From NCBI RefSeq assembly GCF_002159175.1, contig NZ_NFGZ01000026.1:1-42041 (forward strand): a stretch of 42,041 nucleotides of DNA. Reading direction: 5' to 3'. Position numbers and translations under genes: made by a program. This document shows positions 1 through 23,611 of the stretch, in pieces; the first letter of the stretch is position 1; each line of letters begins with the position of its first letter. The notes below the pieces were generated by a model, which was given only the letters and a program-made list of their open reading frames with translations, was not told the origin of the DNA and did not search any database. The DNA is from Flavonifractor sp. An92. GTDB lineage: Bacteria > Bacillota > Clostridia > Oscillospirales > Oscillospiraceae.

Positions 1-312
1 CCCGATTTCTTTTCTCGAAAAGAAATCGGGGAAAGAAAAGAAGGAGAGGGGAACTTCTCGTTCCCCTCTCCACTCCCCTCCAAAAGGGCGGCCTTTTATG
101 GGGCCGCCCCGATTGCCAGGGTACAACGCTTTCCGGATAGGCAGAAAGCCCGGAATTGGCCACGCCATGCTTTGGAAATACCGCCGCAGAAGAATGAAAG
201 CCGGGATGCGTTTTGGGGGAGTCCAGAGGGGGGTATCCCCCCTCTGGGCTTTCTTTCCCACCGTGCAGGCGGCCCGTGCGGCGAGCACAAAAGCCCGGAC
301 GGGCACTCTGTC
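1..312 (-). repeat. Dispersed structured repeat, copy 1 (cut by window edge)
   Basis: This fills the gene-free stretch before the ABC permease and reads on the minus strand. It shares with the other four copies the hairpin CCAGAGGGGGG/CCCCCCTCTGG, the CTTTCCG/CGGAAAG hairpin, the GGGCGGCC/GGCCGCCC hairpin, the GGAGAGGGGAAC/GTTCCCCTCTCC hairpin and a terminal palindrome (1-30) built on CCCGATTTCTTTT. The other terminal palindrome (CACCGCTTTCTTT and its complement in complete copies) is reduced here to its last bases, so this copy carries an internal deletion. The outer inverted repeat GTGCTCGCCGCAC is present near 280. The end of the element lies about 5 bases past the stop codon of the minus-strand permease gene. 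Confidence 0.85.
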
Positions 313-316
313 CTCA

Positions 317-961
317 TTACCACTCTTTTTTGAGGTAAATGGCCCGGGACACCCGGTAGGACCCATAGAGGCCCACCACCACCAGCGCGGCAAAGCTCAC
401 CACTCCGATGGTCACCGCAGCAGTAGTGTTGAGATTGTCGGGAAGCGAACCCTCCATCAGCCCGGCAGCGCCGATGATCCCCACAAAGATGCAGACGAAT
501 ACCAGCGTCATGATGACTCTCCCCCGCTCGATGCCGAATTTATAGCACAGCGGCAGGGTAACGGCGGCCATCAGCAGGCCCACGGTCCCGGAGGACAGAT
601 TGCCCAGCAGCAGCGCTGCCAAGCTTTCTTTCAGCAGGCCCAGGGCCCACAGCGCCGCCGACAGCACACAGCACAGCAGGACTGCGGCCGCCCAGATGGT
701 GAGGGTACACAGATACCGTCCGGCCACCGCGCCCCGACCTCCGTCCGGAAGCGAACAGGCGTAGCCGTCCCACCGGGTAGCCTGGTCAAAGGAAAAGGCG
801 GTGAGGGGGCACATCAGGGTCACCAAGGCCACCATGGCCGCAATGAGGTTGGTACCCCACACGCCGCTGATGCTCAGAAGAGCATACACCGCTAAAATAA
901 ATGCATAGGTCCGCATCTGCTTGCGCAGAACGAAAAGGTCCTTTTTCCAAAAGCCGATCAT
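317..961 (-). CDS. ABC-2-type transporter permease subunit
   Basis: A 214-residue, strongly hydrophobic protein with about six membrane segments and a short basic N-terminus (MIGFWKKDLFVLRKQ). It follows an ABC ATPase gene, so it is most likely the membrane half of a small exporter of the kind encoded in Bacillus ytr-type operons. The start ATG overlaps the stop of the ATPase gene as ATGA, which indicates translational coupling. The substrate cannot be told from the sequence; relatives act in envelope stress or antibiotic response. No separate intrinsic terminator follows the stop; repeat copy 1 begins there instead. Confidence 0.75.
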   Translation of the reverse strand: MIGFWKKDLFVLRKQMRTYAFILAVYALLSISGVWGTNLIAAMVALVTLMCPLTAFSFDQATRWDGYACSLPDGGRGAVAGRYLCTLTIWAAAVLLCCVLSAALWALGLLKESLAALLLGNLSSGTVGLLMAAVTLPLCYKFGIERGRVIMTLVFVCIFVGIIGAAGLMEGSLPDNLNTTAAVTIGVVSFAALVVVGLYGSYRVSRAIYLKKEW

Positions 962-1824
962 GCCTGCTCCCCCCTCACGGTAAACACCATAATGTCCTCC
1001 AGGTCCACCGGGTCCACCGCCAGCTCGGGATAGAGCCGCTTGAACTCTCCCCGGCGGCGAATCAGGGCCTCACACTGGAACTGGCTCTTCCGTACCCCGG
1101 CCAGGAAGGCCGGGTCCACCCGGTCCAGCTCCGCCCGGGTGCAGACCAGGCGGCCAAACTCGGAGAGCAGCACGTCCTTCTCTCCCTGGAGGAGGAGCTT
1201 TCCCTTGTGGAGGTAGGCTACATAGTCCGCCGCCTTCTCCAGGTCGCTGGTGATGTGGCTGGAGAGGAGGACCGCCCGCTCCCCGTCGGAAACGAAGTCC
1301 ATGAGCTTTTCCAGGATGGTATCCCGGGCCACCGGGTCCAGGCCGCTGGTGGCCTCGTCCAGCAGCAGCACCTGGGGATTGCGGGCCAGGGCGGCGGCAA
1401 TGGACAGCTTCATTTTCATGCCCCGCGAAAACTCCTTCACCGTCTTTTTCTCGGGGAGCTCGAACTCTTTCACCAGGGCGGCGTAGCGCTTTTCGTTCCA
1501 GTCCGGGCACACTCCGGCCAGGATCTGCCCCACCATGGCGGCGGTCAGATTCTCGTGGAAGGGGCACTCGTCAAAGACCACCGCCGTGCGGGCCTTGACC
1601 TCCCGCTCCTGTTGGAGGTTGTCCAGTCCCATCACCCGGATCTCGCCTCTGTCCCGGCGGATCAGGTTCAGGATGCACTTGATGGTGGTGGACTTGCCCG
1701 CCCCGTTCTCGCCGATGAGGCCCAGAATGGTCCCCTTCGGCACCTCCAGGCTCACATCCTCCAGACAGAAGGAACCATAGTCCTTGGTGAGATGTCTGAT
1801 CTCAATGGCATTATCATAACTCAT
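958..1824 (-). CDS. ABC transporter ATP-binding protein
   Basis: A 288-residue nucleotide-binding subunit. The Walker A motif GENGAGKS lies at residues 38-45, followed by the signature region FSRGMKMKLS and the Walker B/D-loop LLLDEATSGLDP. The start was set at the ATG at 1824 because the family N-terminus (MSYDNAIEIRHLTKDYG) begins there and because it overlaps the upstream GntR gene as ATGA; the open frame extends further upstream but without homology. It would power the permease encoded directly downstream. The C-terminal third resembles the accessory domain found in YtrB/BcrA-type ATPases. Confidence 0.9.
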   Translation of the reverse strand: MSYDNAIEIRHLTKDYGSFCLEDVSLEVPKGTILGLIGENGAGKSTTIKCILNLIRRDRGEIRVMGLDNLQQEREVKARTAVVFDECPFHENLTAAMVGQILAGVCPDWNEKRYAALVKEFELPEKKTVKEFSRGMKMKLSIAAALARNPQVLLLDEATSGLDPVARDTILEKLMDFVSDGERAVLLSSHITSDLEKAADYVAYLHKGKLLLQGEKDVLLSEFGRLVCTRAELDRVDPAFLAGVRKSQFQCEALIRRRGEFKRLYPELAVDPVDLEDIMVFTVRGEQA

Positions 1825-3232: not shown

Positions 3233-5869
<2,637 letters not shown>

Positions 5870-5871
5870 GT

Positions 5872-6272
5872 CTCCGGACGGCCCGGAGGGGGTGCGCTCG
5901 CCGCGCGGGCGTCCTACCCGGACAGGGCACCGCTTTCTTTGCAAAGAAAGCGGTGGGAAAGAAAGCTCAGAGGGGGGATACCCCCCTCTGGACTCCCCCA
6001 AAGCGCATCCCGGCGTATCTTCTGCTGCGGAGGGATTTTCTTCCCCTGGTGGAACAAAAACCAGGCCTGGTGCCTATGAATAACCTGTTGTACCCCGGCA
6101 ATTGGGGCGGCCCCCTAAAAGGCCGCCCTTTTGGAGGGGAGTGGAGAGGGGAACGAGAAGTTCCCCTCTCCGCCTTTTCTTTCCCCCATTTCTTTTCGCG
6201 AAAAGAAATGGGGCTCCCGCCGAGTAGGCGCGTTCCCTGCGCGGCGAGCGCAAACATACCGGCCTTCCCGGA
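5872..6272 (+). repeat. Dispersed structured repeat, copy 2
   Basis: Fills most of the 539-base gap between the Ca2+ ATPase and trkA. It carries outer inverted repeats with GCGCTCGCCGCGC on the left (5893 onward) and GCGCGGCGAGCGC on the right, a left hairpin GTCC-TACCC-GGAC, the terminal palindrome built on CACCGCTTTCTTT, the four internal hairpins and a right terminal palindrome. The last has CCCATTTC/GAAATGGG where copies 1, 3 and 4 have CCCGATTTC-type or mixed stems. It begins about 3 bases after the ATPase stop. The rest of the gap (6273-6408) holds the trkA promoter. Confidence 0.88.
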
Positions 6273-6302
6273 ATCATACCGTCCCAAAATCCGCAATAGC
6301 CA

Positions 6303-6330
6303 TTGCAAAATCCCGTAAAGGTGATATGAT
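6303..6330 (+). promoter_or_regulatory. Putative trkA promoter
   Basis: TTGCAA (6303-6308) and TATGAT (6325-6330) are 16 bases apart, just outside the right end of repeat copy 2 and 78 bases before the trkA start. Confidence 0.5.
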
Positions 6331-6408
6331 GGTAATACTTGCTCGCTGGCCCCATGGACGCGGAGTGCCGGCGGCTCACAATGTGTATGGAATAAAGGCG
6401 GGACGGAT

Positions 6409-7767
6409 ATGCAGATCATCATCGTGGGCTGCGGCAAGGTGGGCCACACCCTGACGGAACAGCTCAGCGCGGAGGGCCACAATGTAGTGGTGGTGGACCT
6501 GAACCCCCAGCTCATCCGGGAGGTCACAGACGATCTGGACGTGATGGGCGTGGTGGGCAACGGCGCCAGCGTGAATGTACTGAAAGAGGCGGGCATCGAC
6601 AAGACCGACCTCATCATCGCGGTCACCGAGTCGGACGAGCTGAACCTGCTGTGCTGCATCATCGGCAAGCGGGCCTCCGGCGGCTGTCTCACCATCGCCC
6701 GGGTGCGTGACCCCCTGTACAACAAGGAGATCGGCTTCATCAAGGAGCAGATGGGCATTTCCATGGTCATCAACCCGGAGCTCACCACCGCCATGGAGAT
6801 CGCGCGGCTGCTACGCTTCCCCTCGGCCATCAAGATCGATACCTTCGCCAAGGGCCGGGCGGAGCTCCTTACCATCAAGCTGCGCAGCTCCTTCGGCCTG
6901 GGCGGCCGCACCGTGCAGCAGATCGTAGGGGATCTGCACAGTAAAATCCTCATCTGCGCCGTCGAGCGCGGGAACGACGTGTTCATCCCCAACGGCAGCT
7001 TTGTCCTCCAGGACGGGGACAGCGTGTCCATCATGGCCACCCCCCAGGAGGCGGCCTCCTTCTTCCGCAAGATCGGCCTGGGCACCCGCCGGGTGAACAG
7101 CACCCTCATCGTGGGCGGCGGCACCATCGCGGTGTATCTGGCCCGGCAACTGCTGGAGATGGGCATCGACGTGCACATCATCGAGGTCAGCCCCGAGCGC
7201 TGCCGGGAGCTGTGCGAGGAGCTGCCCCAGGCCACCATCCTCCACGGCAACGGCAGCGACCAGCAGATGCTGCTGGAGGCCGGACTGGAGACCACCGAGT
7301 CCTTTGTGGCCATCACCAACATGGACGAGGAAAACCTGCTCCTGGCCCTCTATGCCAAGCAGCACTCCAAGGCCAAGCTGGTGGCCAAGGTCAACCGCAT
7401 CACCTTCTATGATGTCATCGAGAGCCTGGACCTGGGCAGCGTCATTTATCCCAAATACCTCACCGCCGACTACATCATCCAGTACGTCCGGGCCACCCAG
7501 AACTCCATCGGCAGCAACGTGGAGACCCTGTACAACATTCTGGACAGCCGTGCCGAGGCCCTGGAGTTCTATGTCCGCAAGGAGTCGGAGATCACCGCCC
7601 ACTCCCTGGCGGAGCTGGACCTGAAGAGCAACCTGCTCATCGGCTGCATCAACCGCCGGGGCAAGGTCATCTTCCCCCGCGGCCAGGACCGCATCCAGGT
7701 GGGTGACTCGGTCATCGTGGTCACCACCAACAAGGGCTTCCACGACATCCGGGATATTCTGCGCTGA
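6409..7767 (+). CDS. trkA: Trk potassium uptake system, NAD-binding regulatory protein TrkA
   Basis: A 452-residue cytoplasmic protein made of two tandem RCK units. The first begins IIIVGCGKVGHTL with the dinucleotide-binding GxGxxG, and a second nucleotide-binding fold begins at STLIVGGGTIAVYL near residue 230. Each is followed by an RCK_C (TrkA_C) domain, the last ending GDSVIVVTTNKGF. It gates the TrkH channel encoded 52 bases downstream in response to nucleotides, and the two genes very likely form an operon. Confidence 0.95.
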   Translation: MQIIIVGCGKVGHTLTEQLSAEGHNVVVVDLNPQLIREVTDDLDVMGVVGNGASVNVLKEAGIDKTDLIIAVTESDELNLLCCIIGKRASGGCLTIARVRDPLYNKEIGFIKEQMGISMVINPELTTAMEIARLLRFPSAIKIDTFAKGRAELLTIKLRSSFGLGGRTVQQIVGDLHSKILICAVERGNDVFIPNGSFVLQDGDSVSIMATPQEAASFFRKIGLGTRRVNSTLIVGGGTIAVYLARQLLEMGIDVHIIEVSPERCRELCEELPQATILHGNGSDQQMLLEAGLETTESFVAITNMDEENLLLALYAKQHSKAKLVAKVNRITFYDVIESLDLGSVIYPKYLTADYIIQYVRATQNSIGSNVETLYNILDSRAEALEFYVRKESEITAHSLAELDLKSNLLIGCINRRGKVIFPRGQDRIQVGDSVIVVTTNKGFHDIRDILR

Positions 7768-7819
7768 TGTCCCGGACCCCGCTTGAGAATACGCAAGGCG
7801 ATAGGAGAGAGAGTACGAC

Positions 7820-9262
7820 ATGAATCGGGAAGCGATTCGCTTTATTCTGGGCTGGATCCTGAACGTGGAGGGGGCCCTGCTGCTCCTGCCCACCCTGGTG
7901 GCGGCCATTTACCGGGAGAGCTGCGGCTGGACCTTTGCGGCCACGGTGCTGCTGTGTCTGGCCATCGGCATCCCCTGCACCTGGGGCGGCCTGCGGCAGA
8001 AGGTGTTCCATACCCGGGAGGGTCTGGTCATCGTGGCCCTGAGCTGGCTGGTGCTCAGTATCGTGGGCGCCATCCCCTTCGTCCTGAGCGGCGCGATCCC
8101 GCACCCGGTGGACGCCCTCTTTGAGACGGTGTCCGGCTTCACCACCACCGGCGCCAGTATCCTCACCGATGTGGAGAGCCTGCCCCGCAGCATCCTCTTC
8201 TGGCGCAGCTTCACCCACTGGATCGGCGGCATGGGCATCCTGGTGTTTATCCTGTCCATCCTGCCCCTGTCCGGCGGGTACCACATGCACCTGATGAAGG
8301 CTGAGAGCCCCGGCCCCGAGGTCAGCAAGCTGGCCCCCCGGGTCCAGTCCACCGCCAAGATCCTCTACGGCATCTATCTGGTGCTCACGGCGGTGGAGGT
8401 GGTCCTGCTCCTGCTGGGGAATATGCCCCTCTTCGACGCCCTGACCACCACCTTCGGCACGGCCGGTACCGGCGGTTTCGGCATCAAAAATGACAGCATC
8501 ACCAGCTACTCTCCCTATATTCAGTATGTGGTGACCATTTTCATGATCCTCTTCGGGGTCAACTTCAACGCCTATTTCCTCATCCTCATGGGCCGGGCCA
8601 AGCAGCTGCGGTATGCCGAAGAGGTCTGGACCTACCTGGGCATCATCGCCGCGTCGGTGGCGGTCATCGCGTTCAACACCTACCGCATCTATCAGAATGT
8701 GGAGGAGACCTTCCGCCACGCCGCCTTCCAGGTAGCCTCCATCATCACCACCACCGGCTTTGCCACCACCGACTTCGACCAGTGGCCCCAGCTTTCCCGC
8801 ACCATCCTGGTGATCCTCATGTTCATCGGCGCCTGCGCCGGCAGCACCGGCGGCGGCATCAAGGTCTCCCGCCTCCTGATTTTGGTCAAGAGCATCCGCA
8901 TGGAGTTCCACTACTTCCTCCACCCCCGCGAGGTGCGCTGCCTGCGGCTGGAGGGCCACGCGGTGAGCAGTGACACCATCCGCTCGGTGAACGTGTTCCT
9001 CATCACCTATATGATGGTCTTTGTGGTCTCCACCCTTCTCGTCAGCCTGGACAATCAGGATCTGGTGACCAATTTCACCGCCGTGGCCGCTACCCTCAAC
9101 AACATTGGCCCCGGCCTGGCCGCCGTGGGCCCCACCCAGAATTTCAGCCACTTCTCGGTGTTCTCCAAGCTCGTCCTCACCTTCGACATGCTGGCCGGAC
9201 GGCTGGAGCTCTTCCCGGTGCTGCTGATCTTCTTCCCCCGGACCTGGAAGCGGTTCAGCTAA
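7820..9262 (+). CDS. trkH: Trk potassium uptake channel TrkH
   Basis: A 480-residue membrane protein with the four-fold pore architecture of the Trk/Ktr family. The filter segments are visible as VSGFTTTGASI, FGTAGTGGFG, IITTTGFATTDF and TLNNIGPGL. The start ATG at 7820 has AGGAGAGA upstream. It pairs with TrkA, and together they import K+ driven by the membrane potential. Length and motifs are normal for the family. Confidence 0.95.
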   Translation: MNREAIRFILGWILNVEGALLLLPTLVAAIYRESCGWTFAATVLLCLAIGIPCTWGGLRQKVFHTREGLVIVALSWLVLSIVGAIPFVLSGAIPHPVDALFETVSGFTTTGASILTDVESLPRSILFWRSFTHWIGGMGILVFILSILPLSGGYHMHLMKAESPGPEVSKLAPRVQSTAKILYGIYLVLTAVEVVLLLLGNMPLFDALTTTFGTAGTGGFGIKNDSITSYSPYIQYVVTIFMILFGVNFNAYFLILMGRAKQLRYAEEVWTYLGIIAASVAVIAFNTYRIYQNVEETFRHAAFQVASIITTTGFATTDFDQWPQLSRTILVILMFIGACAGSTGGGIKVSRLLILVKSIRMEFHYFLHPREVRCLRLEGHAVSSDTIRSVNVFLITYMMVFVVSTLLVSLDNQDLVTNFTAVAATLNNIGPGLAAVGPTQNFSHFSVFSKLVLTFDMLAGRLELFPVLLIFFPRTWKRFS

Positions 9263-9269
9263 AAAGAAC

Positions 9270-9299
9270 TTGACTGGACCCGGTCCCGGGTGAGATAAT
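9270..9299 (+). promoter_or_regulatory. Promoter of the DUF3842 gene
   Basis: TTGACT (9270-9275) and GATAAT (9294-9299) are 18 bases apart. The -10 box overlaps the first in-frame ATG (9298), so a transcript from here would begin downstream of that ATG. Confidence 0.6.
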
Positions 9300-9333
9300 G
9301 ACTTTCAGCACAGAAACGGAGGAGGGAGAGGCC

Positions 9334-9747: not shown

Positions 9748-9748
9748 C

Positions 9749-9873
9749 GCTCCGACAGGAAGTTGGAGCGGGCGGCACAACGCCGCCCTTCGGTCCCATC
9801 CGGCGCGGTTCCCCCATTTCATTGGATGTCAGGAAGGCATCTGTCCCTTGCAGGGGACAGGTGCCTTCTTTTT
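9749..9873 (+). promoter_or_regulatory. larE leader: three hairpins ending in an intrinsic terminator
   Basis: Hairpins are seen at 9749-9769 (GCTCC/GGAGC), 9770-9788 (GGGCGGC/GCCGCCC) and 9833-9868, the last a 15-bp stem GAAGGCATCTGTCCC paired with its near-complement and followed by TTTTT (9869-9873). The larE ribosome-binding site AAAGGAG starts at 9881, so no promoter fits between terminator and gene. Transcripts reaching larE must pass it. An alternative short stem, GATGT (9825-9829) with GCATC (9837-9841), would break the terminator's 5' arm. I do not recognise a known riboswitch here. Confidence 0.65.
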
Positions 9874-9894
9874 CGGTCAAAAAGGAGTGCTGTT

Positions 9895-10647: not shown

Positions 10648-10650
10648 CAC

Positions 10651-14290: not shown

Positions 14291-14297
14291 TGTTTCA

Positions 14298-14694
14298 TCC
14301 CCGGGAGCCGGGAGGATGTGTCCTCGCCGGACGGACCGCCTGCTCGGCGGGAGCACCGCTTTCTTTGCAAAGAAAGCGGTGGGAAAGAAAGCCCAGAGGT
14401 GGGATACCCCCCTCTGGACTCCCCCAAAACGCTCCCCGGCTTTCATTCTGCTGCGCCGGTATTTCCAAAGTGCGGCGTGGCCAATTCCAGACTTTCCGCC
14501 TATCCGGAAAGCGTTGTACCCTGCTGCTCGGGGCGGCCCCATAAAAGGCCGCCCTTTTGGAGGGGAGTGGAGAGGGGAACGAGAAGTTCCCCTCTCCGCC
14601 TTTTCTTTCCCCGGTTTCTTTTCCGCGAAAAGAAATCGGGCCCCCGCTGGGTAAGCGGCCCGCCCGGCGAGGGCAATTGTTCCGGTCTCCCCGG
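14298..14694 (+). repeat. Dispersed structured repeat, copy 3, inside the nik operon
   Basis: Occupies almost all of the 440-base gap between nikA and nikB, beginning about 7 bases after the nikA stop and ending 36 bases before the nikB ATG. The left end (CCCCGGGAGCCGGGAGGAT) is inverted on the right (CCGGTCTCCCCGG). The left hairpin is CCGCC-TGCTC-GGCGG and the right counterpart CCGC-TGGGTAA-GCGG. All internal hairpins are present. The right palindrome has one extra C (TTTTCCGCGAAAAG) compared with copies 2 and 4. No other feature was seen in this gap beyond the nikB ribosome-binding site. Confidence 0.88.
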
Positions 14695-14730
14695 AGCTGA
14701 ACCGAATCCCAAACCGAAAGAAGGAATCCC

Positions 14731-15723: not shown

Positions 15724-16541
15724 ACAGCAATTCCCGGCGCGCCACTCTGGCGCTGGCCCTGCTGGCGGCGGCGGTGCTGCTGCTGGTGACGGTGGCGGGA
15801 ACAGCCCTCCACGACGCGGCTATGGTCACCGACTTCTCCCGTAAGAATTTACCGCCCTCCCTGACCTGGCTCTTCGGCACCGATTGGATGGGGCGGGACA
15901 TGCTGGCCCGCACCCTGGCGGGGCTCTCCCTGAGCATCCGCATCGGCCTCCTCACCGCGGCGGTGAGCGCCGTGCTGGCCCTGGTGCTGGGGGTGGCCGC
16001 CGCCGCTCTGGGCGGCTGGGTGGACAGCGTCCTCTCCTGGGTCATCGACCTCTTTCTGGGCATCCCCCACATTTTGCTGATGATGCTCCTGTCCCTGGCC
16101 TTCGGCAAGGGCTTTGTAGGGGTAGTGGCGGCGGTATCCCTGAGCCACTGGCCCTCCCTGGCCCGGTTGCTGCGAAGTGAGGTCCTCCAGCTGAAAAACG
16201 CCCCCTACATCCGGGTGGCCGAACACCTGGGCGTGTCCCGGCTGGCCATCGCCCGGCGGCACTTTCTCCCCCACCTGCTGCCCCAGTTCCTCACCGCCCT
16301 GGTGCTCCAGTTCCCCCACGCCATCCTCCACGAGGCCTCCATCACCTTTCTGGGCTTCGGCCTGTCCTCCGAACAGCCCGCCATCGGGGTCATCCTGTCG
16401 GAGAGCATGAGCTATCTCACCACCGGGCGGTGGTGGTTGGCCCTGTTCCCCGGGCTGGCGCTGGTGGGCGTGGTGGTGCTCTTCGCCCGGCTGGGGGACA
16501 GGGTGCGGGCCCTGCTGGACCCGGCCAGCGTACACGCATAA
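15720..16541 (+). CDS. nikC: Nickel ABC transporter permease (NikC-like)
   Basis: A 273-residue second permease subunit. The segment LFGTDWMGRDMLARTLAG is the typical start of DppC/NikC permease domains, and the EAA loop (RVAEHLGVSRLAIARRHFLPHLL) is intact. The start overlaps the nikB stop, and the nikD ribosome-binding site AAGGAGGG directly follows its own stop. Confidence 0.9.
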   Translation: MNSNSRRATLALALLAAAVLLLVTVAGTALHDAAMVTDFSRKNLPPSLTWLFGTDWMGRDMLARTLAGLSLSIRIGLLTAAVSAVLALVLGVAAAALGGWVDSVLSWVIDLFLGIPHILLMMLLSLAFGKGFVGVVAAVSLSHWPSLARLLRSEVLQLKNAPYIRVAEHLGVSRLAIARRHFLPHLLPQFLTALVLQFPHAILHEASITFLGFGLSSEQPAIGVILSESMSYLTTGRWWLALFPGLALVGVVVLFARLGDRVRALLDPASVHA

Positions 16542-16555
16542 GGAGGGAGAAACAT

Positions 16556-17494
16556 ATGAATCCGATTCTGGAAGTGGAGCACTTTAACCTCTCCTTCACC
16601 CAGTACGACCGGGGGTCCCGGCGCAGGCAGTTCACCGCCATCCGGGACCTGAATCTCACCGTCCGCGCCGGGGAGGTGGCGGCAGTGGTGGGGAGCAGCG
16701 GCTCGGGCAAGAGCCTGCTGGCCCACGCGGTGCTGGGCCTTCTGCCCTACAATGCCGCCCCATCCGGGACCATCCGTTACGCCGGCGAAGAACTTACATC
16801 CGAACGAGTAGCCGCCCTCCGGGGGCGGGAGATGGTCCTCATTCCCCAAGGGGTGTCCTGGCTGGACCCGCTGATGCAGGTGGGCCCCCAGCTCCGCCGG
16901 GGGGACCGCTCCCCCGCCGCCCGGCAGCGCTCTGCCGCCGCCCTGGGCCGCTACGGCCTGGGCCCGGAAACCGAGACTTTGTACCCCTTTGAGCTCTCCG
17001 GCGGCATGGCCCGGCGGGTGCTGATGGCCTGCGCCGTGCAGGAAAACCCCCGGCTTGTGGTGGCCGACGAGCCCACCCCCGGCCTGGACCCCACCGCCGC
17101 TGGGCGCATGTTAGGCCACTTCCGGGAGCTGGCAGAGGGGGGCGCTGGGGTGCTGTTCATCACCCACGACCTGGAGTTGGCCCTGGCGGTAGCCCACCGG
17201 GTAACGGTGTTTTACGCCGGTACTACCGTGGAGGAGGTGGCGGTGGACGCTTTTTCCTCCGGGCAGCTGGCCCACCCCTACACCCGGGCCCTGTGGGACG
17301 CCCTGCCCCAGAACGGCTTCACCCCCCTCCCTGGAGCACAGCCCGGGCCCGGGGAGGTCCTGGACGGCTGCCCCTTCGCCCCACGCTGTCCCCATTGCCG
17401 CCCGGAGTGCCGGTCCGGGGCGCTGCCCCCCTGGCGGGAAACGCCCCTGGGCCGGGTCCGCTGTCACGCCTGGGAAGGAGGAGACGCATTGTGA
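16556..17494 (+). CDS. nikD: Nickel ABC transporter ATPase (NikD-like)
   Basis: A 312-residue ATPase with Walker A GSSGSGKS (46-53), signature LSGGM (147-151) and Walker B LVVADEP (167-173). The C-terminal extension with CPFAPRCPHCRPEC is the oligopeptide/nickel ATPase tail. The ATG at 16556 was chosen for the AAGGAGGG upstream. The stop overlaps the GTG of the next gene as GTGA. Confidence 0.9.
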   Translation: MNPILEVEHFNLSFTQYDRGSRRRQFTAIRDLNLTVRAGEVAAVVGSSGSGKSLLAHAVLGLLPYNAAPSGTIRYAGEELTSERVAALRGREMVLIPQGVSWLDPLMQVGPQLRRGDRSPAARQRSAAALGRYGLGPETETLYPFELSGGMARRVLMACAVQENPRLVVADEPTPGLDPTAAGRMLGHFRELAEGGAGVLFITHDLELALAVAHRVTVFYAGTTVEEVAVDAFSSGQLAHPYTRALWDALPQNGFTPLPGAQPGPGEVLDGCPFAPRCPHCRPECRSGALPPWRETPLGRVRCHAWEGGDAL

Positions 17495-18096
17495 GCCTGG
17501 AAGGACAAAATCTCACCTTTTTCTACCCCAAGAAAAAACATTCCCCCGTGCTCCAGGGGGTCGATCTGACCCTGGAGCCGGGGGAACGGCTGGGGCTCTC
17601 CGGCCCCAGCGGCCGGGGGAAGAGCACTTTGTGTCGCCTGCTGGCCGGGTATGAGCGTCCGAAATCCGGCCAGGTATTGCTGGACGGCGCGCCCCTAACC
17701 GTGAAGCGCGGACGGCCCAACTCGGTGCAGCTTTTGTGGCAGAATCCGGAGCTGGCGGTGGACCCGCTGCTTCCCCTGGGCCGCACCCTGGCGGAGGGCG
17801 GACCGGTGGAAGAGCGGCTGCTGGAGGCCCTCCAGATCCGGCCCGAGTGGCTGAGGCGCTACCCCGCCGAGCTCTCCGGCGGCGAGCTCCAGCGCTTCTG
17901 CATCGCTAGGGCGCTGAGGCCCGCCACCCGGTACCTCCTGTGCGATGAGAGCACCGCCATGCTGGACCTCATCACTCAGGCCCAGCTCTGGGCCTTCCTA
18001 CTGGAAGAGGCGGAGCGGCGGAATCTGGGGCTTCTCATCGTCAGCCATAGTGACGCTCTGCTCCGGCGGCTGTGTACCCGAATTCAGGTGCTGTGA
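17491..18096 (+). CDS. nikE: Nickel ABC transporter ATPase (NikE-like), short
   Basis: A 201-residue ATPase with Walker A GPSGRGKS (38-45), signature LSGGELQR and a Walker B region LLCDESTAML. It ends soon after the switch region (LLIVSHSD) and lacks the C-terminal tail of NikD, making it shorter than the roughly 260-residue E. coli NikE. The start GTG overlaps nikD. It is the last gene of the lar-nik operon; the stop codon directly abuts repeat copy 4. Confidence 0.88.
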   Translation: MSLEGQNLTFFYPKKKHSPVLQGVDLTLEPGERLGLSGPSGRGKSTLCRLLAGYERPKSGQVLLDGAPLTVKRGRPNSVQLLWQNPELAVDPLLPLGRTLAEGGPVEERLLEALQIRPEWLRRYPAELSGGELQRFCIARALRPATRYLLCDESTAMLDLITQAQLWAFLLEEAERRNLGLLIVSHSDALLRRLCTRIQVL

Positions 18097-18476
18097 TTGC
18101 GCGCTCGCCGCGCAGGCCGCCTGCTCGGCGGGAGCACCGCTTTCTTTGCAAAGAAAGCGGTGGGAAAGAAAGCCCAGAGGGGGGATACCCCCCTCTGGAC
18201 TCCCCCAAAACGCATCCCGGCCTCCATCCGGCTGCGGAGGGATTTCATTACCCTGGCGTGGCCAATTCCGGGCTTTCCGCCTATCCGGAAAGCGTTGTAC
18301 TCTGGCAATATGGGGCGGCCACTAAAAGGCCGCCCTTTTGGAGGGGAGTGGAGAGGGGAACGAGAAGTTCCCCCCTCCGCCTTTTCTTTCCCCGGTTTCT
18401 TTTCGCGAAAAGAAATCGGGCCCCCGCTGGGTAAGCGGCCCGCGCGGCGAGCGCAAATCCTCCGGGCTCCCCGGGG
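18097..18476 (+). repeat. Dispersed structured repeat, copy 4
   Basis: Starts at the base after the nikE stop, with the outermost left bases merged into the gene end, and ends with the full right inverted repeat (GCGCGGCGAGCGC then CTCCGGGCTCCCCGG). The left terminal palindrome is 18135-18162 and the GGGGGG/CCCCCC hairpin 18174-18198. The GGGCGGCC/GGCCGCCC hairpin is followed by TTTT and resembles a weak rightward intrinsic terminator. The remaining gene-free sequence to 18534 holds the tRNA-Sec terminator. Confidence 0.88.
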
Positions 18477-18502
18477 AGAAATATATACATAAGCATAAAA
18501 AA

Positions 18503-18534
18503 GAACGCCCGCGCTCGATTGAGCGCGGGCGTTT
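18503..18534 (-). terminator. Intrinsic terminator after tRNA-Sec
   Basis: A 12-bp perfect stem (ACGCCCGCGCTC with its complement, AATC loop) is followed on the minus strand by TCTTTTTT. It directly follows the 3' end of selC. On the plus strand the same stem is followed by TTTT, so it may also stop rightward transcripts from the nik side. Confidence 0.85.
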
Positions 18535-18630
18535 TGGCGGGGACAGGTAAGAATCGAACTCACCAAGGCGGGAACGCCGCCCTCTACGGTTTTGAAGACC
18601 GCGGGGCTCACCAGATACCCTTCTATCCCC
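18535..18630 (-). tRNA. selC: Selenocysteine tRNA (anticodon UCA)
   Basis: A 96-nt tRNA on the minus strand. An 8-bp acceptor stem (GGGGATAG with CTGTCCCC), G discriminator and encoded CCA (18535-18537) are seen. The anticodon stem CGGT/ACCG encloses CTTCAAA with anticodon TCA. A 7-bp extra arm (AGGGCGG with CCGCCTT) and a T arm with GTTCGATTC complete it. The long acceptor and extra arm are the tRNA-Sec hallmarks. It lies downstream of selA and selB. Confidence 0.95.
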
Positions 18631-18634
18631 AGAT

Positions 18635-18679
18635 ACATCTGCCCCGGGTCTATGGATGACCACCCCGGACAGCAGATGT
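18635..18679 (-). other. Hairpin in the 5' leader of pre-tRNA-Sec
   Basis: Between the selC promoter and the tRNA lies a hairpin with a perfect 8-bp outer stem (ACATCTGC with GCAGATGT) and further pairing inside (GGTC/GACC). It ends only 4 bases before the tRNA 5' end. It may guide RNase P processing or folding; no function is established. Confidence 0.6.
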
Positions 18680-18680
18680 A

Positions 18681-18709
18681 ATTATAGCGTAAAATGATAA
18701 AGTCGTCAA
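18681..18709 (-). promoter_or_regulatory. selC: selC promoter
   Basis: On the minus strand TTGACG (18704-18709) and TATAAT (18681-18686) are 17 bases apart, in the gap between the selB stop and selC. tRNA-Sec therefore has its own strong promoter besides any read-through from selAB. Confidence 0.8.
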
Positions 18710-18727
18710 CCGCTTTCCCGCTTTTTC

Positions 18728-20632
18728 TCAGGGCTTTTTCAGCAGAACGCGGCTGTCGCCCTCCTTTTTGGTAAAGCCTTCGCTGTCCCAGTACTCCAGC
18801 AGGGCCAGGGCGTACTTGCGGGAAATGCCCAGGACGTCCCGGAACTCGGCCAGGGAGAGCTGGGGCTTCTGATCGAAGAGGCCGATAAGGGCGTCGGCGG
18901 CCTGCCGGTAATAATCCTTGCGCAGCACGATCTGGGCGTTGAGGGGCACCAGATCCCCGTCGTAGAAGAGGCGCTGGACCACCTGCCGGGCGCCGTCCTG
19001 CTTCTTGCCAAAGGAGCCCACGATGTCGTCCAGATTCTCCGGCGCCAAACCCGCCTTGCCGTAGAGGTCCAGCAGCTGGTCCTTCAGGCCGGTGTAGAAG
19101 GAGTTCCATACCACCTGGAAGTCGGGCAGAGCCACGGTGGGGCCCTCGATGCGCAGGCCCCGGTGCTCGGCAAAGTAGTCGATGAGGGCGTCGATGGCCG
19201 CCGGGGAGGCGGTGGGCAGGAGTTTGCCCCGGAACTCGCCCCGGTTCATGCCGGGCTGGAGGGGCTGGGCCTTGTGGTAGTCGCCCAGGAATTTGACGCA
19301 CTTCTCCCACAGGCCCTCCAGGGCCTCGTGGCTGATGTAGCGGCCCACCAGCTCCACCACCGAACCATTTTCCAGCATGGGGGTGATGGACTCGGTGAGC
19401 TCACCGTCGGTGAGACCGGCGTGCTTGGCCAGGTCGTGGTGCTTGGGCAGGCTGGTACCCGCCTGGCGCAGGGCCTCCAGCACCTGCTTCTCCGACGAGC
19501 CGGAGGCGCGGGCGGCCAGGCCCTCCAGCACCGCCAGGTCGTTGCGCTTGTGGCGGCCCGGGGCGGCATTGAGGATGACGCCGCCGCCCACCGTCACCAG
19601 GGGCGAGAAGAAGCGCACCACATAGTGGTCGCCGTTCTTCACCGCCACGTCCTCCTGGAAGCGGAGCTGGGCGTACCCGGTCTCGCCGGGCTCCATCTGG
19701 TCCTTGCCCAGCACCACACACTTGCACACCAGCTCCCGGCTGCTGTGGTGGAAGTGGAGCTGGGTGTCGTTCTTGATGGGATAGGGGGAGTCTTTCAGCA
19801 CCGTGAGCTGCACGTCCATCTGCCGGGAGAGCACCATGGAGCCGGGCTTGGCGATGGTGTCGCCCCGCTTCACGTCGGCCTTATCGATGCCGGACAGGTT
19901 CACCGCCACGCGCATACCGGCGCTGGCCCGCTCCTCGGGCTGGTCGTGGTTCTGAAGGCCGCGGATGCGGGCCTTTTTCTCGCTGGGATAGATGGACACT
20001 TCCTCGCCCAGCTTCATGGAGCCCTCGATGAGGGTGCCGGTGACCACGGTGCCAAAGCCGTCCACCGAGAACACCCGGTCCACCGGCAGGCGGAAGGGCC
20101 GGTCCTGGTTGCGCTGCTCGGCGCCCTCCACCAGCTTCACGATGAGCTGCTTGAGCTCCTCAATGCCCTGGCCGGTGTAGGACGACACGGCGATGATGGG
20201 GGCGTTCTGGAGGAAGGTGCCCTGGACGGTCTCCCGGGCCTCCTCCTCGATGGCCTCCAGCCACTCCTCGTCCACCATGTCGGCCTTGGTGACCACGATG
20301 ATGCCGTTCTGCACCCCCAGCAGGGACAGGATGCCCAGGTGCTCCCGGGTCTGGGGCATGAACCCCTCGTCGGCGGCGATGACCATGAGGACCACGTCCA
20401 TACCCGACGCGCCCACCAGCATGTTGCGGATGAACTTCTCATGGCCGGGCACGTCGATGATGCTGGCGGTCTGGCCGTTGGGCAGGGTGAGCTGGGCAAA
20501 GCCGATCTCGATGGTGATGCCCCGCTTCTGCTCCTCCTTGAGCCGGTCGGTGTCCACCCCGGTGAGGGCCCGGGTAAGGCAGGTCTTGCCGTGGTCCACA
20601 TGGCCGGCGGTACCGATGATGATATGCTTCAT
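18728..20632 (-). CDS. selB: Selenocysteine-specific elongation factor SelB
   Basis: A 634-residue GTPase that carries Sec-tRNA to UGA codons with a SECIS element. The G domain shows GHVDHGKT (10-17), DVPGH (60-64) and TKAD (115-118). EF-Tu-like barrels follow, and the C-terminal part contains the winged-helix repeats that bind the SECIS RNA. Length matches the family. It starts 15 bases after selA and is followed by selC, giving selA-selB-selC. Confidence 0.97.
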   Translation of the reverse strand: MKHIIIGTAGHVDHGKTCLTRALTGVDTDRLKEEQKRGITIEIGFAQLTLPNGQTASIIDVPGHEKFIRNMLVGASGMDVVLMVIAADEGFMPQTREHLGILSLLGVQNGIIVVTKADMVDEEWLEAIEEEARETVQGTFLQNAPIIAVSSYTGQGIEELKQLIVKLVEGAEQRNQDRPFRLPVDRVFSVDGFGTVVTGTLIEGSMKLGEEVSIYPSEKKARIRGLQNHDQPEERASAGMRVAVNLSGIDKADVKRGDTIAKPGSMVLSRQMDVQLTVLKDSPYPIKNDTQLHFHHSSRELVCKCVVLGKDQMEPGETGYAQLRFQEDVAVKNGDHYVVRFFSPLVTVGGGVILNAAPGRHKRNDLAVLEGLAARASGSSEKQVLEALRQAGTSLPKHHDLAKHAGLTDGELTESITPMLENGSVVELVGRYISHEALEGLWEKCVKFLGDYHKAQPLQPGMNRGEFRGKLLPTASPAAIDALIDYFAEHRGLRIEGPTVALPDFQVVWNSFYTGLKDQLLDLYGKAGLAPENLDDIVGSFGKKQDGARQVVQRLFYDGDLVPLNAQIVLRKDYYRQAADALIGLFDQKPQLSLAEFRDVLGISRKYALALLEYWDSEGFTKKEGDSRVLLKKP

Positions 20633-20647
20633 AGCGCAAGCGCTCCT

Positions 20648-22042
20648 TTATTTCAGAATGGCGTCCAGCGCCCGGACGATCTCCTCCCCGTCCTCATGGG
20701 TGAGGGTGCGGGGGTCCAGCACGTACTTTTCGTGGCGGATGCGGCCCACGATGGGGGTCTCCCAGGCCCGCAGGGCCTTTTCCAGCGCGTCCAGGGAGCA
20801 GTTCACCGGGGCGAGCTCCACCACCCAGGTGGGCAGGGGCACGCCGGGCAGACTGCCGCCGCCCACCTCGCCGGTATCGGGGGCGGTGGTGACGGTGCAG
20901 CGCGCCCCCAGCTTCTCGGTAAGCGCCGCAGCAAAGGCCTCAGCCCGCAACCGCAGCTCCTCCCGGGTGGCCCCCAGCATGGAGAGAGTGGGGATGCGCC
21001 GGGCGGCCAGGGCGTGGTCCTCGTAGAAGCGGAGGGTGGCCTCCAGCGCCGCCAGGGTCAGCTTGTCGATGCGCACCACCCGGGCGAACTGGTTCTTCTT
21101 CATGGCCTCAATGTATTCCTTCTTGCCGATGGCGATGCCCGCCTGGGGCCCGCCCAGGAGCTTGTCGCCCGAAAAGCACACCACGTCGGCTCCGGCCTTC
21201 ACGCTGTCCTCCACGGTGGGGCCGTCGGGGACGCCCAGGACCTGGTCGGTGAAGAGCGCGCCGCTGCCCAGGTCGTGGAACACAGGGACGCTGTACTCCT
21301 TGCCCAGGGCCACCAGGTCCTCGGTAGAGACCTCCTCGGTGAAGCCGATGAGCTTGAAGTTGCTGGTGTGGACTTTCAGCAGGATCTCGGCCCCCTGCTC
21401 CTCGATGGCCCGGCGGTAGTCGGACAGATGGGTCTTGTTGGTGGTGCCCACCTCAATGAGGTGCGCGCCGCTGCGGGCCATGATCTCGGGCACCCGGAAG
21501 GACCCGCCGATCTCCACCAGCTCGCCCCGGGAGATGGCCACCTTCTTCCCGGCGGCCAGGGCAGAGAGCATGAGGAACACCGCCGCGGCGTTGTTGTTCA
21601 CCGCCAGGGCACCCTCCGCGCCGGTGAGGGAGCAAATGAGTTTGTCCACATGGGAGAAGCGGCTGCCCCGCCGGCCCTCGTCCAGATTGTACTCCAGATT
21701 GGAGTAGCCACGGGCGGCCTCGTACACGGCCTTGGCGGCCTCCTCGCCCAGAGGGGCGCGGCCCATATTGGTGTGGAGCACCACGCCGGTGGCGTTGATG
21801 ACCCGCCGCAGGTGGGGCCGGCAGGCGGCCCGGGCCTGAGTGATGGCGGCCTGGGCCAGCACGGCGGTCTCGGGGAGGGCGGTAATGCTGCCGTCCAGAA
21901 TGCCCCGGCGCAGGCCGTCCAGCTGGGCGCGGGCGGCCTCCTTCAGCGCGTGGTAGGGCAGCTCGCTCTGGGCCTCCACCAGCGCGGGGCAGGTCAGAAG
22001 CACATCCATCTTGGGGAGCTGCTGAAGCAGAGCTTTGTCCAT
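20648..22042 (-). CDS. selA: L-seryl-tRNA(Sec) selenium transferase SelA
   Basis: A 464-residue PLP enzyme that converts Ser-tRNA(Sec) to Sec-tRNA(Sec) using selenophosphate. The PLP lysine is K294 in CFSGDKLLGGPQAG. Other family segments are INATGVVLHTNMGRAPL and YSNLEYNLDEGRRGSR. GGAGG precedes the ATG. selD, needed to make selenophosphate, is not in this window, so it must be elsewhere if the pathway works. Confidence 0.97.
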   Translation of the reverse strand: MDKALLQQLPKMDVLLTCPALVEAQSELPYHALKEAARAQLDGLRRGILDGSITALPETAVLAQAAITQARAACRPHLRRVINATGVVLHTNMGRAPLGEEAAKAVYEAARGYSNLEYNLDEGRRGSRFSHVDKLICSLTGAEGALAVNNNAAAVFLMLSALAAGKKVAISRGELVEIGGSFRVPEIMARSGAHLIEVGTTNKTHLSDYRRAIEEQGAEILLKVHTSNFKLIGFTEEVSTEDLVALGKEYSVPVFHDLGSGALFTDQVLGVPDGPTVEDSVKAGADVVCFSGDKLLGGPQAGIAIGKKEYIEAMKKNQFARVVRIDKLTLAALEATLRFYEDHALAARRIPTLSMLGATREELRLRAEAFAAALTEKLGARCTVTTAPDTGEVGGGSLPGVPLPTWVVELAPVNCSLDALEKALRAWETPIVGRIRHEKYVLDPRTLTHEDGEEIVRALDAILK

Positions 22043-22104
22043 GGGGTGAACCTCCAGTTTCCGGGGCGGAGGGGTCCGCCCCGAGTCATCACAATGTATC
22101 AGAC

Positions 22105-22134
22105 ATTATATCATACCGCCCGAAGGAGGGACAA
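22105..22134 (-). promoter_or_regulatory. selA: selAB promoter
   Basis: On the minus strand TTGTCC (22129-22134) and TATAAT (22105-22110) are 18 bases apart, 62 bases upstream of the selA start. Confidence 0.7.
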
Positions 22135-22164
22135 GCCAAAAGGCAAAACTTTGTGGTTCACGCC

Positions 22165-22193
22165 TTGTCCCCGGTTCCCTTCTGGGGTACAAT
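22165..22193 (+). promoter_or_regulatory. Promoter of the transglutaminase-like gene
   Basis: TTGTCC (22165-22170) and TACAAT (22188-22193) are 17 bases apart, pointing right and divergent from the selA promoter. Confidence 0.6.
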
Positions 22194-22234
22194 GGGGAGA
22201 ACGTCCCGCCGGAGCGGGAGCAAGGAGGATGGAC

Positions 22235-23251
22235 ATGGAGCTCTACTACTACCACCATATGAGCCCTCTGGAGCAGGAGGTGTACCGGGCCCTGCGGGAA
22301 GGCCTCAGTCAGGTGCGCCCCACCGTGGTCGTGCCCCGGCTGGAGGGAAAGGCGTTGGGCGATGTGCTCTTCAAGCTGCGGCTGGACCTGCCGGAGCTCT
22401 TCTATGTCACCGGGTTCTCCTACCGCTTCCACCCGGCGGGGAGCCATGTGGAGGTGCTGCCCGAGTACCTCTTCCCCAAGGCCAAGGTCCTCACCCACCA
22501 AAAGGCCATCCAGGCCCGGGTGGAGCGGCTGTGCCGTCCCTTGCAGAAAAAGTCCCCCTGGGAGCAGGCGGAGGCCATCCACGACCTTCTCTGCACCACG
22601 GTCCACTACGATAAGCTGAAAAAGCCCTACTCCCACGAGGTCATCGGTCCGCTGACCCAGGGAGTCGGGGTATGCGAGGGCATTGCCAAGTCAGTGAAGC
22701 TCCTGTGCGACACGTTGGGCATCTGGTGCATCCTGGTCCTCAGCGAGGCCGACCCGGAGCACGGCGTGAAATACCGTCACGCCTGGAACCTGGTGAAGCT
22801 GGGCGGGCAGTACTACCACCTGGACGCCACCTTCGATAACACCCTCAGCCAGGGCGGGGAGTTAAGACGGGACTACCTGTTTCTGGACGACAAACGGGCC
22901 TTCCGGGACCATTTGCCCGCCCTCTACCCGGTGCCCACCTGCACCGACAGCGGCAAATTCTACTACAAGACCGCCAAGCGCTCCTTCACCAAGCCGGAGG
23001 AGGTGGCCTCCCGGGCCCGGCAGGCCATGCGGAAGGATCAGACCCTGGTGTTCCACTGGCGGGGCGGGCCTCTCACCGCCGATGTGCTGGGAGAGCTGGT
23101 GAAACTGCTGGAGGACGTCGCCCGGGAGAAGGACCGCCACGCCCGCATCCAGGTCAACCGCCCCCAGGCGGTCTTTCAGGTGACCTTCCCCAAGGAGGAA
23201 GTCGCCGCCGCGGTGGTGGAGGAAGAGGCCAACGAGGGGGAGAGTTTGTAG
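22235..23251 (+). CDS. Transglutaminase-like domain protein
   Basis: A 338-residue protein with a transglutaminase/cysteine-protease core. C147 in GVGVCEGIAKS, H182 in YRHAWNLV and D197 in YHLDATFD form the expected triad. No signal peptide or membrane segment is seen at this start, so it is probably cytoplasmic. The ATG at 22235 is preferred over 22229 because AAGGAGG ends at 22228. The C-terminal part has no recognisable domain and ends in a Glu-rich tail. The substrate is unknown. Repeat copy 5 follows the stop. Confidence 0.8.
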   Translation: MELYYYHHMSPLEQEVYRALREGLSQVRPTVVVPRLEGKALGDVLFKLRLDLPELFYVTGFSYRFHPAGSHVEVLPEYLFPKAKVLTHQKAIQARVERLCRPLQKKSPWEQAEAIHDLLCTTVHYDKLKKPYSHEVIGPLTQGVGVCEGIAKSVKLLCDTLGIWCILVLSEADPEHGVKYRHAWNLVKLGGQYYHLDATFDNTLSQGGELRRDYLFLDDKRAFRDHLPALYPVPTCTDSGKFYYKTAKRSFTKPEEVASRARQAMRKDQTLVFHWRGGPLTADVLGELVKLLEDVAREKDRHARIQVNRPQAVFQVTFPKEEVAAAVVEEEANEGESL

Positions 23252-23261
23252 GGCCCCTGCT

Positions 23262-23611
23262 TTCCGGGGAGCCCGGAAGATCTGCGCTCGCCGCGCGGGC
23301 GTCCTACCCGGACGGGGCACCGCTTTCTTTGCAAAGAAAGCGGTGGGAAAGAAAGCGCAGAGGGGGGATACCCCCCTCTGCACTCCCCCAAAACGCATCC
23401 CGGCTTTCATTCTGCTGCGGCGGTATTTCCAAAGTACGGCGTGGCCAATTCCAGGCTTTCCGCCTATCCGGAAAGCGTTGTACCCCGGCAAAAAGGGCGG
23501 CCCCTGAAAGGCCGCCCCTTTGGAGGGGAGTGGAGAGGGGAACGAGAAGTTCCCCTCTCCGCTTTTTCTTTCCCCCATTTCTTTTCGCAAAAAGAAATGG
23601 GGCCCTGTCCG
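23262..23611 (+). repeat. Dispersed structured repeat, copy 5, right end truncated
   Basis: Fills the gap between two convergent genes. The left end is complete (CCGGGGAGCCCGGAAGAT, then GCGCTCGCCGCGC and the GTCC-TACCC-GGAC hairpin). The right end keeps the matching GTCCGGGTAGGAC hairpin but stops before the outer GCGCGGCGAGCGC, just before the stop codon of the leftward nucleotidase gene. The right palindrome has the CCCATTTC/GAAATGGG stem seen in copy 2, with CGCAAAAAG instead of CGCGAAAAG. Confidence 0.88.

What the first reader, a model, noticed from the sequence alone, without database searches (positions are those of the whole stretch)
1..23611. Five-copy, non-coding, multi-hairpin repeat with inverted ends
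A unit of about 380-400 bp occurs at 1-312 (minus), 5872-6272, 14298-14694, 18097-18476 and 23262-23611. Complete copies have outer inverted repeats (left CCGGGGAGCCCGGA..GCGCTCGCCGCGC, inverted on the right), then a small hairpin, a terminal palindrome on each side followed by GGAAAGAAA, and four internal hairpins. No plausible protein is shared between copies. This looks like a MITE-like mobile element or a structured RNA/REP-type element; I do not recognise it as a known family.
Basis: seen in the sequence. Interest (0 to 1): 0.8.

Follow-up and report, generated by a model that had tools for sequence, protein, structure and literature searches.

The report
Orphan multi-hairpin repeat at gene ends
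A roughly 360-400-letter non-coding DNA repeat, made of two mirror-image sets of hairpins and present in dozens of copies, sits mostly just after the ends of genes in a gut bacterium; relatives with a similar folding plan occur in a few other clostridia and alphaproteobacteria, no enzyme that moves it was found, and its hairpins are kept by paired changes, which suggests it does something at gene ends.

Summary
Confirmed and extended. The repeat is real and non-coding. In its own genome (3.49 Mb) an end-model finds 94 distinct ends: 41 complete pairs (38 of 41 span 355-364 bp) and 12 single ends, 7 of these at contig edges. Each element is two inverted copies of one module of four to five hairpins around a centre. 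Three end helices (H1, H2A, H2B) covary strongly; H2A and H2B overlap and exclude each other. The end unit also occurs in many copies in two alphaproteobacterial MAGs (41 and 32 matches) and in three other clostridial genomes, but of 196 genomes drawn from the class only the own one matched. Copies sit at gene 3' ends: 18 of 40 lie between convergent genes against 9 of 82 other gaps. In 29 own elements 56 of 58 halves point a terminator-like hairpin outward. One site is empty in five relatives. No target-site duplication, no Y1/RAYT transposase in the own genome, no Rfam family, phage or plasmid match. Best reading: an orphan REP/BIME-like (REPIN-like) element family kept at gene ends, in this genus probably a bidirectional terminator or 3'-end structure.

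The parts
1..312 (-). Copy E0, cut by the contig end; on the other side H3 is deleted
   Evidence: end match 251-290 -
5872..6272 (+). Copy E1, complete; 2 bp after the stop codon of a P-type cation ATPase gene, upstream of a TrkA-like gene
5872..5888 (+). H0 left: outer hairpin, stem sequence differs between copies
   Evidence: sequence
5894..5906 (+). H1 left: GCGC-TCGCC-GCGC; stem covaries between copies, loop nearly constant
5911..5923 (+). H2A left: GTCC-TACCC-GGAC (other copies CCGCC..GGCGG, in other taxa also CAGCC..GGCTG)
5916..5928 (+). H2B left: ACCC-GGACA-GGGC, overlaps and excludes H2A, covaries on its own
5929..5954 (+). H3 left: 26-bp palindrome ACCGCTTTCTTTGCAAAGAAAGCGGT
   Evidence: sequence
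5955..5964 (+). GGGAAAGAAA spacer; read outward it is the T-rich tail after H4
5968..5990 (-). H4 left: strong hairpin, terminator-like when read outward (- strand)
6141..6183 (+). H4 right with CTTTTCTTTC tail: terminator-like when read outward (+ strand)
6184..6213 (+). H3 right: 30-nt palindrome CCCCATTTCTTTTCGCGAAAAGAAATGGGG
6239..6251 (-). H1 right, inverted
6259..6271 (-). H0 right
   Evidence: sequence
14298..14694 (+). Copy E2, complete; between a solute-binding protein gene and a permease gene; site empty in five relatives
18097..18476 (+). Copy E3; directly after an ABC transporter ATPase gene, before tRNA-Sec on the other strand
23262..23618 (+). Copy E4; between two convergent genes, right H1/H0 missing

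Best explanation
It is a non-autonomous, REP/BIME-like intergenic repeat (closest in plan to a REPIN: two inverted hairpin units), without a known mobilising enzyme. Shown: copies stand at many different places, some sites are empty in relatives, a good part of the sites is shared with a sister species, hairpin stems are kept by paired changes, and copies cluster at gene 3' ends. Inferred: it once spread by an unidentified enzyme working on hairpin ends and is now mostly resident. At gene ends the outward H4 hairpin with its T-rich tail on either strand probably stops transcription from both sides, while the hairpins next to the stop codon may shield or hold the upstream message. Likelihoods: REP/BIME-like orphan element 0.7; terminator or 3'-end function in this genus 0.45.
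For: Copies: 94 distinct ends, 41 pairs, 12 single (150 of 9286 candidates scored). Covariation: 163 cells with both sides changed against 61.8 in shuffles, 93.9% paired against at most 46.9% when slid (64 ends taken from 139); 11 of 29 RNAalifold pairs changed on both sides (49 own ends); 15 alphaproteobacterial ends: H1 60 of 60 cells Watson-Crick with three pair types at one position. Gene ends: 18 of 40 convergent against 9 of 82 other gaps, Fisher p = 4.8e-5; 35 of 57 neighbouring gene 3' ends within 30 bp, 27 of 57 within 15 bp. Outward terminator-like hairpins: own 28 of 29 right and 28 of 29 left halves, inward 4 and 3 of 29, letter-shuffled halves 0.2 and 0 of 29; G007 57 of 65, G005 9 of 9, G002 6 of 8 modules. 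Outward strand folds more stably in 48 of 49 own modules, mean -7.6 kcal/mol, and in 47 of 52 of G007. Mobility: E2 site empty in G001, G003, G004, G006, G009. Left and right H1 stems vary independently (9 of 49 alike, 12.9 expected; 49 of 52 pairs from several genomes used), so each hairpin pairs with itself rather than with the other end.
Against: Terminator-like hairpins are absent or rare in G004 (1 of 7), G006 (0 of 3) and the alphaproteobacteria (0 of 14). Strand asymmetry is absent in G002 (3 of 8) and G004 (4 of 8), reversed in other clostridia (0 of 8 outward); in alphas 7 of 15 outward with 72-nt modules and only 2 of 15 with 40-nt ones; over whole own elements it is nil (mean -0.37 kcal/mol, 29 elements). 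Copy E2 sits inside what is a tight junction in relatives (20-70 bases between the two matching stretches), where a strong terminator would cut off the permease. G.U intermediates are rare (43 of 768 cells, 30 of them at one pair), fewer than I would expect of a pure RNA constraint. Copies mostly group by species although many sites are shared, so gene conversion could help keep stems alike. No expression data were available.
Confidence: 0.6

Rival explanations
1. A MITE: an internal-deletion remnant of a DNA transposon (TG..CA ends), moved in trans by a DDE-type transposase.
For: Inverted ends, non-coding, high copy, uniform length 355-364 bp in 38 of 41 pairs; outermost bases TG..CA nearly constant.
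Against: No target-site duplication: mean longest direct repeat between flanks 5.81 against 5.85 with swapped partners, 48 copies, though old insertions could have lost it. No own pair of ends between 365 bp and 6 kb. Stems vary while pairing is kept, unlike protein-read double-stranded TIRs; left and right ends do not match each other in H1. DDE transposases themselves were not searched.
Confidence: 0.15
2. A RAYT-mobilised REPIN in the strict sense.
For: Inverted hairpin units, intergenic and near stop codons as in REPs (PMC3733652 passages); RAYT-like genes exist in G001 (two) and G003 (one) and one in G239; PF01797 genes above the cut-off in 5 of 10 genomes of the genus (G001, G002, G003, G004, G006).
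Against: No match in the own genome for PF01797 or for a RAYT protein; of 5 further genomes with the unit only 1 has a RAYT by NF047646; no end unit at E < 0.1 beside the 8 distinct Y1/RAYT genes examined in ten loci; G001 and G003, which have RAYTs, show no end unit at E <= 0.001, only 6 and 7 weak matches to inner parts; no GTAG or CGTC tag.
Confidence: 0.1
3. A structured non-coding RNA (not mainly a repeat of mobile origin), expressed from many loci.
For: Very low folding energy of both halves of E1 against shuffles (z -5.8 and -4.6); conserved overlapping helices H2A/H2B suggest a two-state fold.
Against: Dozens of copies, a site empty in relatives, strand preference not general. Promoters of the copies were not tested.
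Confidence: 0.1
4. Hairpins are kept not by selection but by templated repair of imperfect palindromes and gene conversion between copies.
For: Few G.U intermediates; four H1 stem classes make up 176 of 216 ends (which includes some wrong-strand reads); copies mostly group by species although many sites are shared.
Against: Loop TCGCC in 13 of 15 alphaproteobacterial ends as in clostridia; overlapping H2A and H2B both stay paired, which repair of one palindrome would not obviously produce.
Confidence: 0.15

Closest known systems
REP sequences / BIMEs (bacterial interspersed mosaic elements)
   Same: Intergenic palindromes in inverted pairs, high copy, close to stop codons and between convergent or co-directional genes; palindromes preserved by complementary changes (PMC3733652 and PMC2817692, passages read)
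   Different: Unit is four to five hairpins, element 360-400 bp, no GTAG or CGTC tag, outward terminator-like hairpins on both sides in several species of the genus, unrelated sequence
REPINs with RAYT transposases
   Same: Two hairpin units in inverted orientation make one non-autonomous element (recalled; PMC3116915 seen in search listing only)
   Different: No RAYT found in the own genome, none seen flanked by the unit elsewhere; far longer
CGTC-tagged REPs
   Same: Mostly alphaproteobacterial, no dedicated transposase (PMC3733652 passages)
   Different: Different sequence and tag; ours also in clostridia
bcr1 of Bacillus cereus
   Same: Mobile-like repeat of a Firmicute with conserved secondary structure (recalled)
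   Different: bcr1 is about 155 bp with TTTAT duplications (recalled); no duplication seen here
MITEs
   Same: Short, inverted ends, no coding sequence
   Different: No target-site duplication, no parent transposon found

Membership tests
RAYT-REPIN | RAYT gene in the genome or clade, flanked by the hairpins | tested here: not met
RAYT-REPIN | GTAG (or GTRG) tetranucleotide at the hairpin foot | tested here: not met
   by reading the ends: hairpin H0, then mostly GGRGG(W)TTTG, then H1
RAYT-REPIN | Two palindromes in inverted orientation | tested here: met
   but several palindromes per side
REP/BIME (broad sense) | High-copy extragenic palindromes near gene 3' ends, stems with paired changes | tested here: met
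REP/BIME (broad sense) | Binding by gyrase, IHF or Pol I (recalled) | not testable with these tools
   none
CGTC REP | Unpaired CGTC tag at one end, mostly CCA tail, 4-5 base loop | tested here: not met
   by reading: H2 type 2 contains CGTCC, but as part of a stem, and other copies lack it
MITE | Target-site duplication | tested here: not met
   48 copies
MITE | Full-length relative with transposase sharing the ends | tested here: inconclusive
   none among own pairs up to 6 kb; L103 pair at 1.7 kb holds no transposase recognised by eye; not searched in all genomes
Rfam RNA family | Score above gathering threshold over the element | tested here: not met
   (below-threshold matches such as MIR918, 35 bits against 268, taken as chance)
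Intrinsic terminator | GC hairpin followed by T tract | tested here: met
   own 56 of 58 halves outward; mostly not in G004, G006 and alphas
Intrinsic terminator | Stops transcription | not testable with these tools
   no expression data

The most novel reading that the evidence does not exclude
A previously undescribed, patchily distributed superfamily of hairpin-ended elements spanning Clostridia and Alphaproteobacteria, whose end unit carries two overlapping, mutually exclusive helices that are both kept by paired changes (a two-state DNA or RNA hairpin), moved by an unknown hairpin-reading enzyme and co-opted as a bidirectional 3'-end module.
Probability: 0.35. Interest if true: 0.78.

Novelty: new variant of a known kind. 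Interest (0 to 1): 0.58.

Why it matters
This family puts dozens of hairpin clusters of one plan at gene ends, and at some rearrangement points, in gut Oscillospiraceae. If it stops transcription from both sides it is a movable, ready-made bidirectional terminator. If the end unit really is shared between clostridia and alphaproteobacteria, it points to an undiscovered mobilising enzyme that reads hairpins, and the overlapping covarying helices H2A/H2B give a concrete, testable handle on what that enzyme or RNA-binding factor recognises.

Tried and rejected
Whole-element strand test: folding energy of 29 whole own elements does not favour a strand; only the single modules do, and only in some species. 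Target-site duplication: none seen. Recent copies in G007 to read off a junction: best distinct pair 92.5% alike (the two 100% pairs are the same places fetched twice). Y1/RAYT link: one RAYT-like gene of G001 (L179) stands in the intergenic place where own and G009 have an element, but no end unit flanks it; I take this as coincidence. Element pair 1.7 kb apart in L103: no transposase recognised among its ORFs by eye (not searched against families). Viral contigs with the exact H1-H2 pattern: 0. Literature: ten searches showed no description of this repeat; only the listed top 6-20 papers of each were seen, one search was for an exact 14-letter piece (0 papers), and the library is the openly licensed part of PMC. 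Of papers I read passages of PMC3733652, PMC2267715, PMC2817692 and PMC12306157, no whole text. One search counted some wrong-strand reads of the H2 region as H1 (the GCTC/GAGT rows); one search replaces it: of 139 distinct ends 69 were taken (9 from other genomes, 60 at random), five wrong-strand rows dropped, 64 used. labels L139 as G007 by mistake (it is Ca. Flavonifractor intestinipullorum, by its places the same genome as G009). The count of shared sites (15 of 30 own copies in G007, two more in G009, one in G006; criterion: flank match ends within 50 bases of the site and within 150 bases of an end unit, read off) rests on loci fetched because they hold the element, so it is biased upward.
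Full report
Observation. The five copies are present at the stated places. The window is one whole contig (G000:C19) of a 3.49-Mb, 60-contig genome, so copy 1 is cut by the contig end. BLAST with copy 2 scored 40 places in the own genome (40 of 69 first-look candidates were scored). A covariance model of the 40-nt end unit (R1, built from 64 ends of several genomes) gives 108 own matches (150 of 9286 candidates scored). Removing matches within 3 bases of a better one leaves 94 places: 41 plus/minus pairs and 12 single ends, 7 of the 12 near a contig edge. The span is 355-364 bp in 38 of 41 pairs; the other three are 196, 272 and 295 bp, of which the two read keep both ends and have lost inner parts.

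Anatomy. Each side of the element carries, from outside in: H0, a hairpin whose stem differs between copies and is missing in some; H1, GNNC-TCGCC-GNNC; H2; H3, a 26-30 nt palindrome; the spacer GGGAAAGAAA; H4, a strong GC hairpin; then a centre. The other side is the same in inverted order, with its own H3/H4 sequence. In other species of the genus H3 and H4 have other sequences but the same order; in G005 the H1 loop is enlarged.

Covariation. On 64 distinct ends, H1 (columns 3-6/12-15), H2A (20-23/29-32) and H2B (25-28/34-37) give 93.9% paired cells, 163 cells with both sides changed (shuffles 61.8, sd 7.1; 0 of 500 as high) and a covariation score of 0.522 (shuffles 0.175); the number of pairs with a two-sided change (8) does not exceed shuffles (256 of 500 as high). 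Partners slid by 1-3 columns give at most 46.9% paired. H2B is the weakest (84.4% of cells paired; its outermost pair fails in 34 of 64). H2A and H2B share columns 25-32 and cannot form together in one molecule, yet both covary. On 49 own ends RNAalifold finds 11 of 29 pairs with both sides changed. Left and right H1 stems of one element are independent (9 of 49 alike, 12.9 expected; own and other genomes together), so the pairing that is kept is local.

Strand. G.U pairs are rare: 36 cells wobble on the outward strand, 7 on the inward strand, of 768, and 29 of the 36 are one pair. In right-type H3, 66 of 97 ends hold an outward G.U pair and none an outward A.C pair. Single own modules fold more stably outward in 48 of 49, G007 in 47 of 52, G005 6 of 9, G006 2 of 2; but G002 3 of 8, G004 4 of 8, other clostridia 0 of 8, alphas 7 of 15 with 72-nt and 2 of 15 with 40-nt modules, and whole elements show no preference. 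The outward-RNA reading therefore holds for this species and its sister, not for the family.

Place. With a codon-usage gene caller of my own (its calls on the window are), 44 own copies were placed; 40 have genes on both sides: 18 convergent, 19 co-directional, 3 divergent, against 9 convergent of 82 other gaps of at least 20 bp (Fisher p = 4.8e-5; divergent 3 of 40 against 18 of 82, p = 0.07). Of 57 neighbouring gene 3' ends 35 are within 30 bp and 27 within 15 bp of the element. REPs in other bacteria have the same habit, and REPs within 15 nt of a stop codon lower translation in E. coli (PMC3733652 and PMC12306157, passages). Copy E2 lies between a family-5 solute-binding protein gene and a permease gene, a place like that of the REP between malE and malF in E. 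coli (recalled; the search for it, listed no paper on it).

Terminator-like hairpins. A plain scan of window 5000-24900 finds 23 terminator-like sites (11.4 expected); 14 of the 23 lie in the four elements (my count). With a stricter rule (stem at least 8, at least 5 GC pairs, at least 5 T in 8) 28 of 29 right halves and 28 of 29 left halves of own elements qualify outward, 4 and 3 inward, letter-shuffled halves 0.2 and 0 of 29. Other species: G007 57 of 65, G005 9 of 9, G002 6 of 8, G004 1 of 7, G006 0 of 3, alphas 0 of 14.

Spread. In the 20 kb around copies 2-5, nine same-genus genomes were compared. The E2 site is empty in five (G001, G003, G004, G006, G009: 20-70 bases between the two matching stretches) and filled in G007, there in the other orientation and with a different H0. 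The E4 site is filled in both own and G007, left end in the same orientation, but H0, the H1 stem and the H2 type differ, and the G007 copy is shortened and runs into other DNA. By a fixed criterion 15 of 30 own copies have an end unit at the same place in G007, two more in G009 and one in G006 (read off, biased sample); the own L016 site is empty in G007. In a tree of 22 own, 18 so-called G007 and one G009 copies most group by species; own L003, L008 and L009 fall outside and one G007 copy (L032) lies next to the own group. So copies at shared sites have been made alike within species, by gene conversion or re-insertion. No target-site duplication is seen in 48 copies.

Mobiliser. PF01797 and a RAYT protein find nothing in the own genome. 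PF01797 genes are in 5 of the 10 genomes of the genus. RAYT-like genes exist in G001 and G003 (NF047646 71.7 and 69.2 bits for the two of G001, under the cut-off of 80), the two same-genus genomes with no end unit at E <= 0.001 (they do have 6 and 7 weak matches to inner parts). No end unit at E < 0.1 lies beside the 8 distinct Y1/RAYT genes in ten loci. There are no matches in phage or plasmid records (an alphaproteobacterial copy in plasmids, none) or, for the exact pattern, in viral contigs. DDE transposases were not searched.

Distribution. Matches of R1 at E <= 0.001: G000 108, G007 150 (all 150 scored, so a lower bound), G004 20, G005 19, G002 14, G008 5, G009 5, G006 4; G001, G003, G020, G034 none (own counts include antisense doubles). 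Named contigs of equal length identify G005 as Pseudoflavonifractor sp. MSJ-37, G004 as sp. 524-17, G006 as P. gallinarum and G007 as Ca. Flavonifractor merdigallinarum. In 200 genomes of the family, at least 90% complete, the pattern with up to one mismatch hits 7, of which 6 are the genus (the hits of G001 and of the other genus are single and carry a mismatch). In 196 genomes of the class R1 hits only the own genome at E <= 1e-5, with stricter filters and at most 33 candidates scored each. Five alphaproteobacterial copies read in full (about 130-140 bp from H1 to H1) have both arms in the order H1-H2-H3-centre-H3-H2-H1, four of the five with an H0-like hairpin by eye, and new H2A stems such as CAGCC/GGCTG and GTGC/GCAC occur. 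Dozens of such units per genome are not chance; whether this is descent, transfer or convergence on a shared binding partner is open.

Judgement. By behaviour this is a REP/BIME-like element; by membership it is neither a RAYT-REPIN nor a CGTC REP nor a typical MITE, since defining features were tested and not met. I therefore call it a new variant of a known kind. The function at gene ends is inferred from position and structure only.

Noticed in passing
window 14712-18086 and 18504-23483 against G007:C149 (L168): Between the own genome and G007 these gene blocks are inverted to each other, with breakpoints at the elements E3/E4; something similar around own copies L019/L024.
   Followed up: partly
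L179 1417-1953; L180: RAYT-like genes of G001 with what look like GTAG-type palindromes inside or next to the coding sequence; L179 sits in the gap where own and G009 have an element.
   Followed up: partly
L201 13-416 (G242:C99): End units in tandem, about 91 bp apart, in Clostridiaceae strain 9; other arrays at 59 and 34 bp spacing in the same genome.
   Followed up: no
L103 2715-4418: An element of strain 524-17 with 1.7 kb of unrelated DNA (ORFs of 173 and 113 aa among others) between its ends.
   Followed up: partly
L069 7063-7170: A short element in G007 (92 bp between the two end anchors): H1-H2-H3-H2-H1 without H4 or centre.
   Followed up: no
L057 about 1420-1465: In G020, beside a partial match of the element, a palindrome that looks like a CGTC-type REP (recalled motif).
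   Followed up: no
window 18539-18630 and 40565-40662: tRNA-Sec gene (-) next to copy E3, and a purine riboswitch (+).
   Followed up: no
window 11451-18096: Probable nickel-related operon: nickel insertion protein, solute-binding protein, two permeases, two ATPases, with copy E2 inside and E3 after it.
   Followed up: partly
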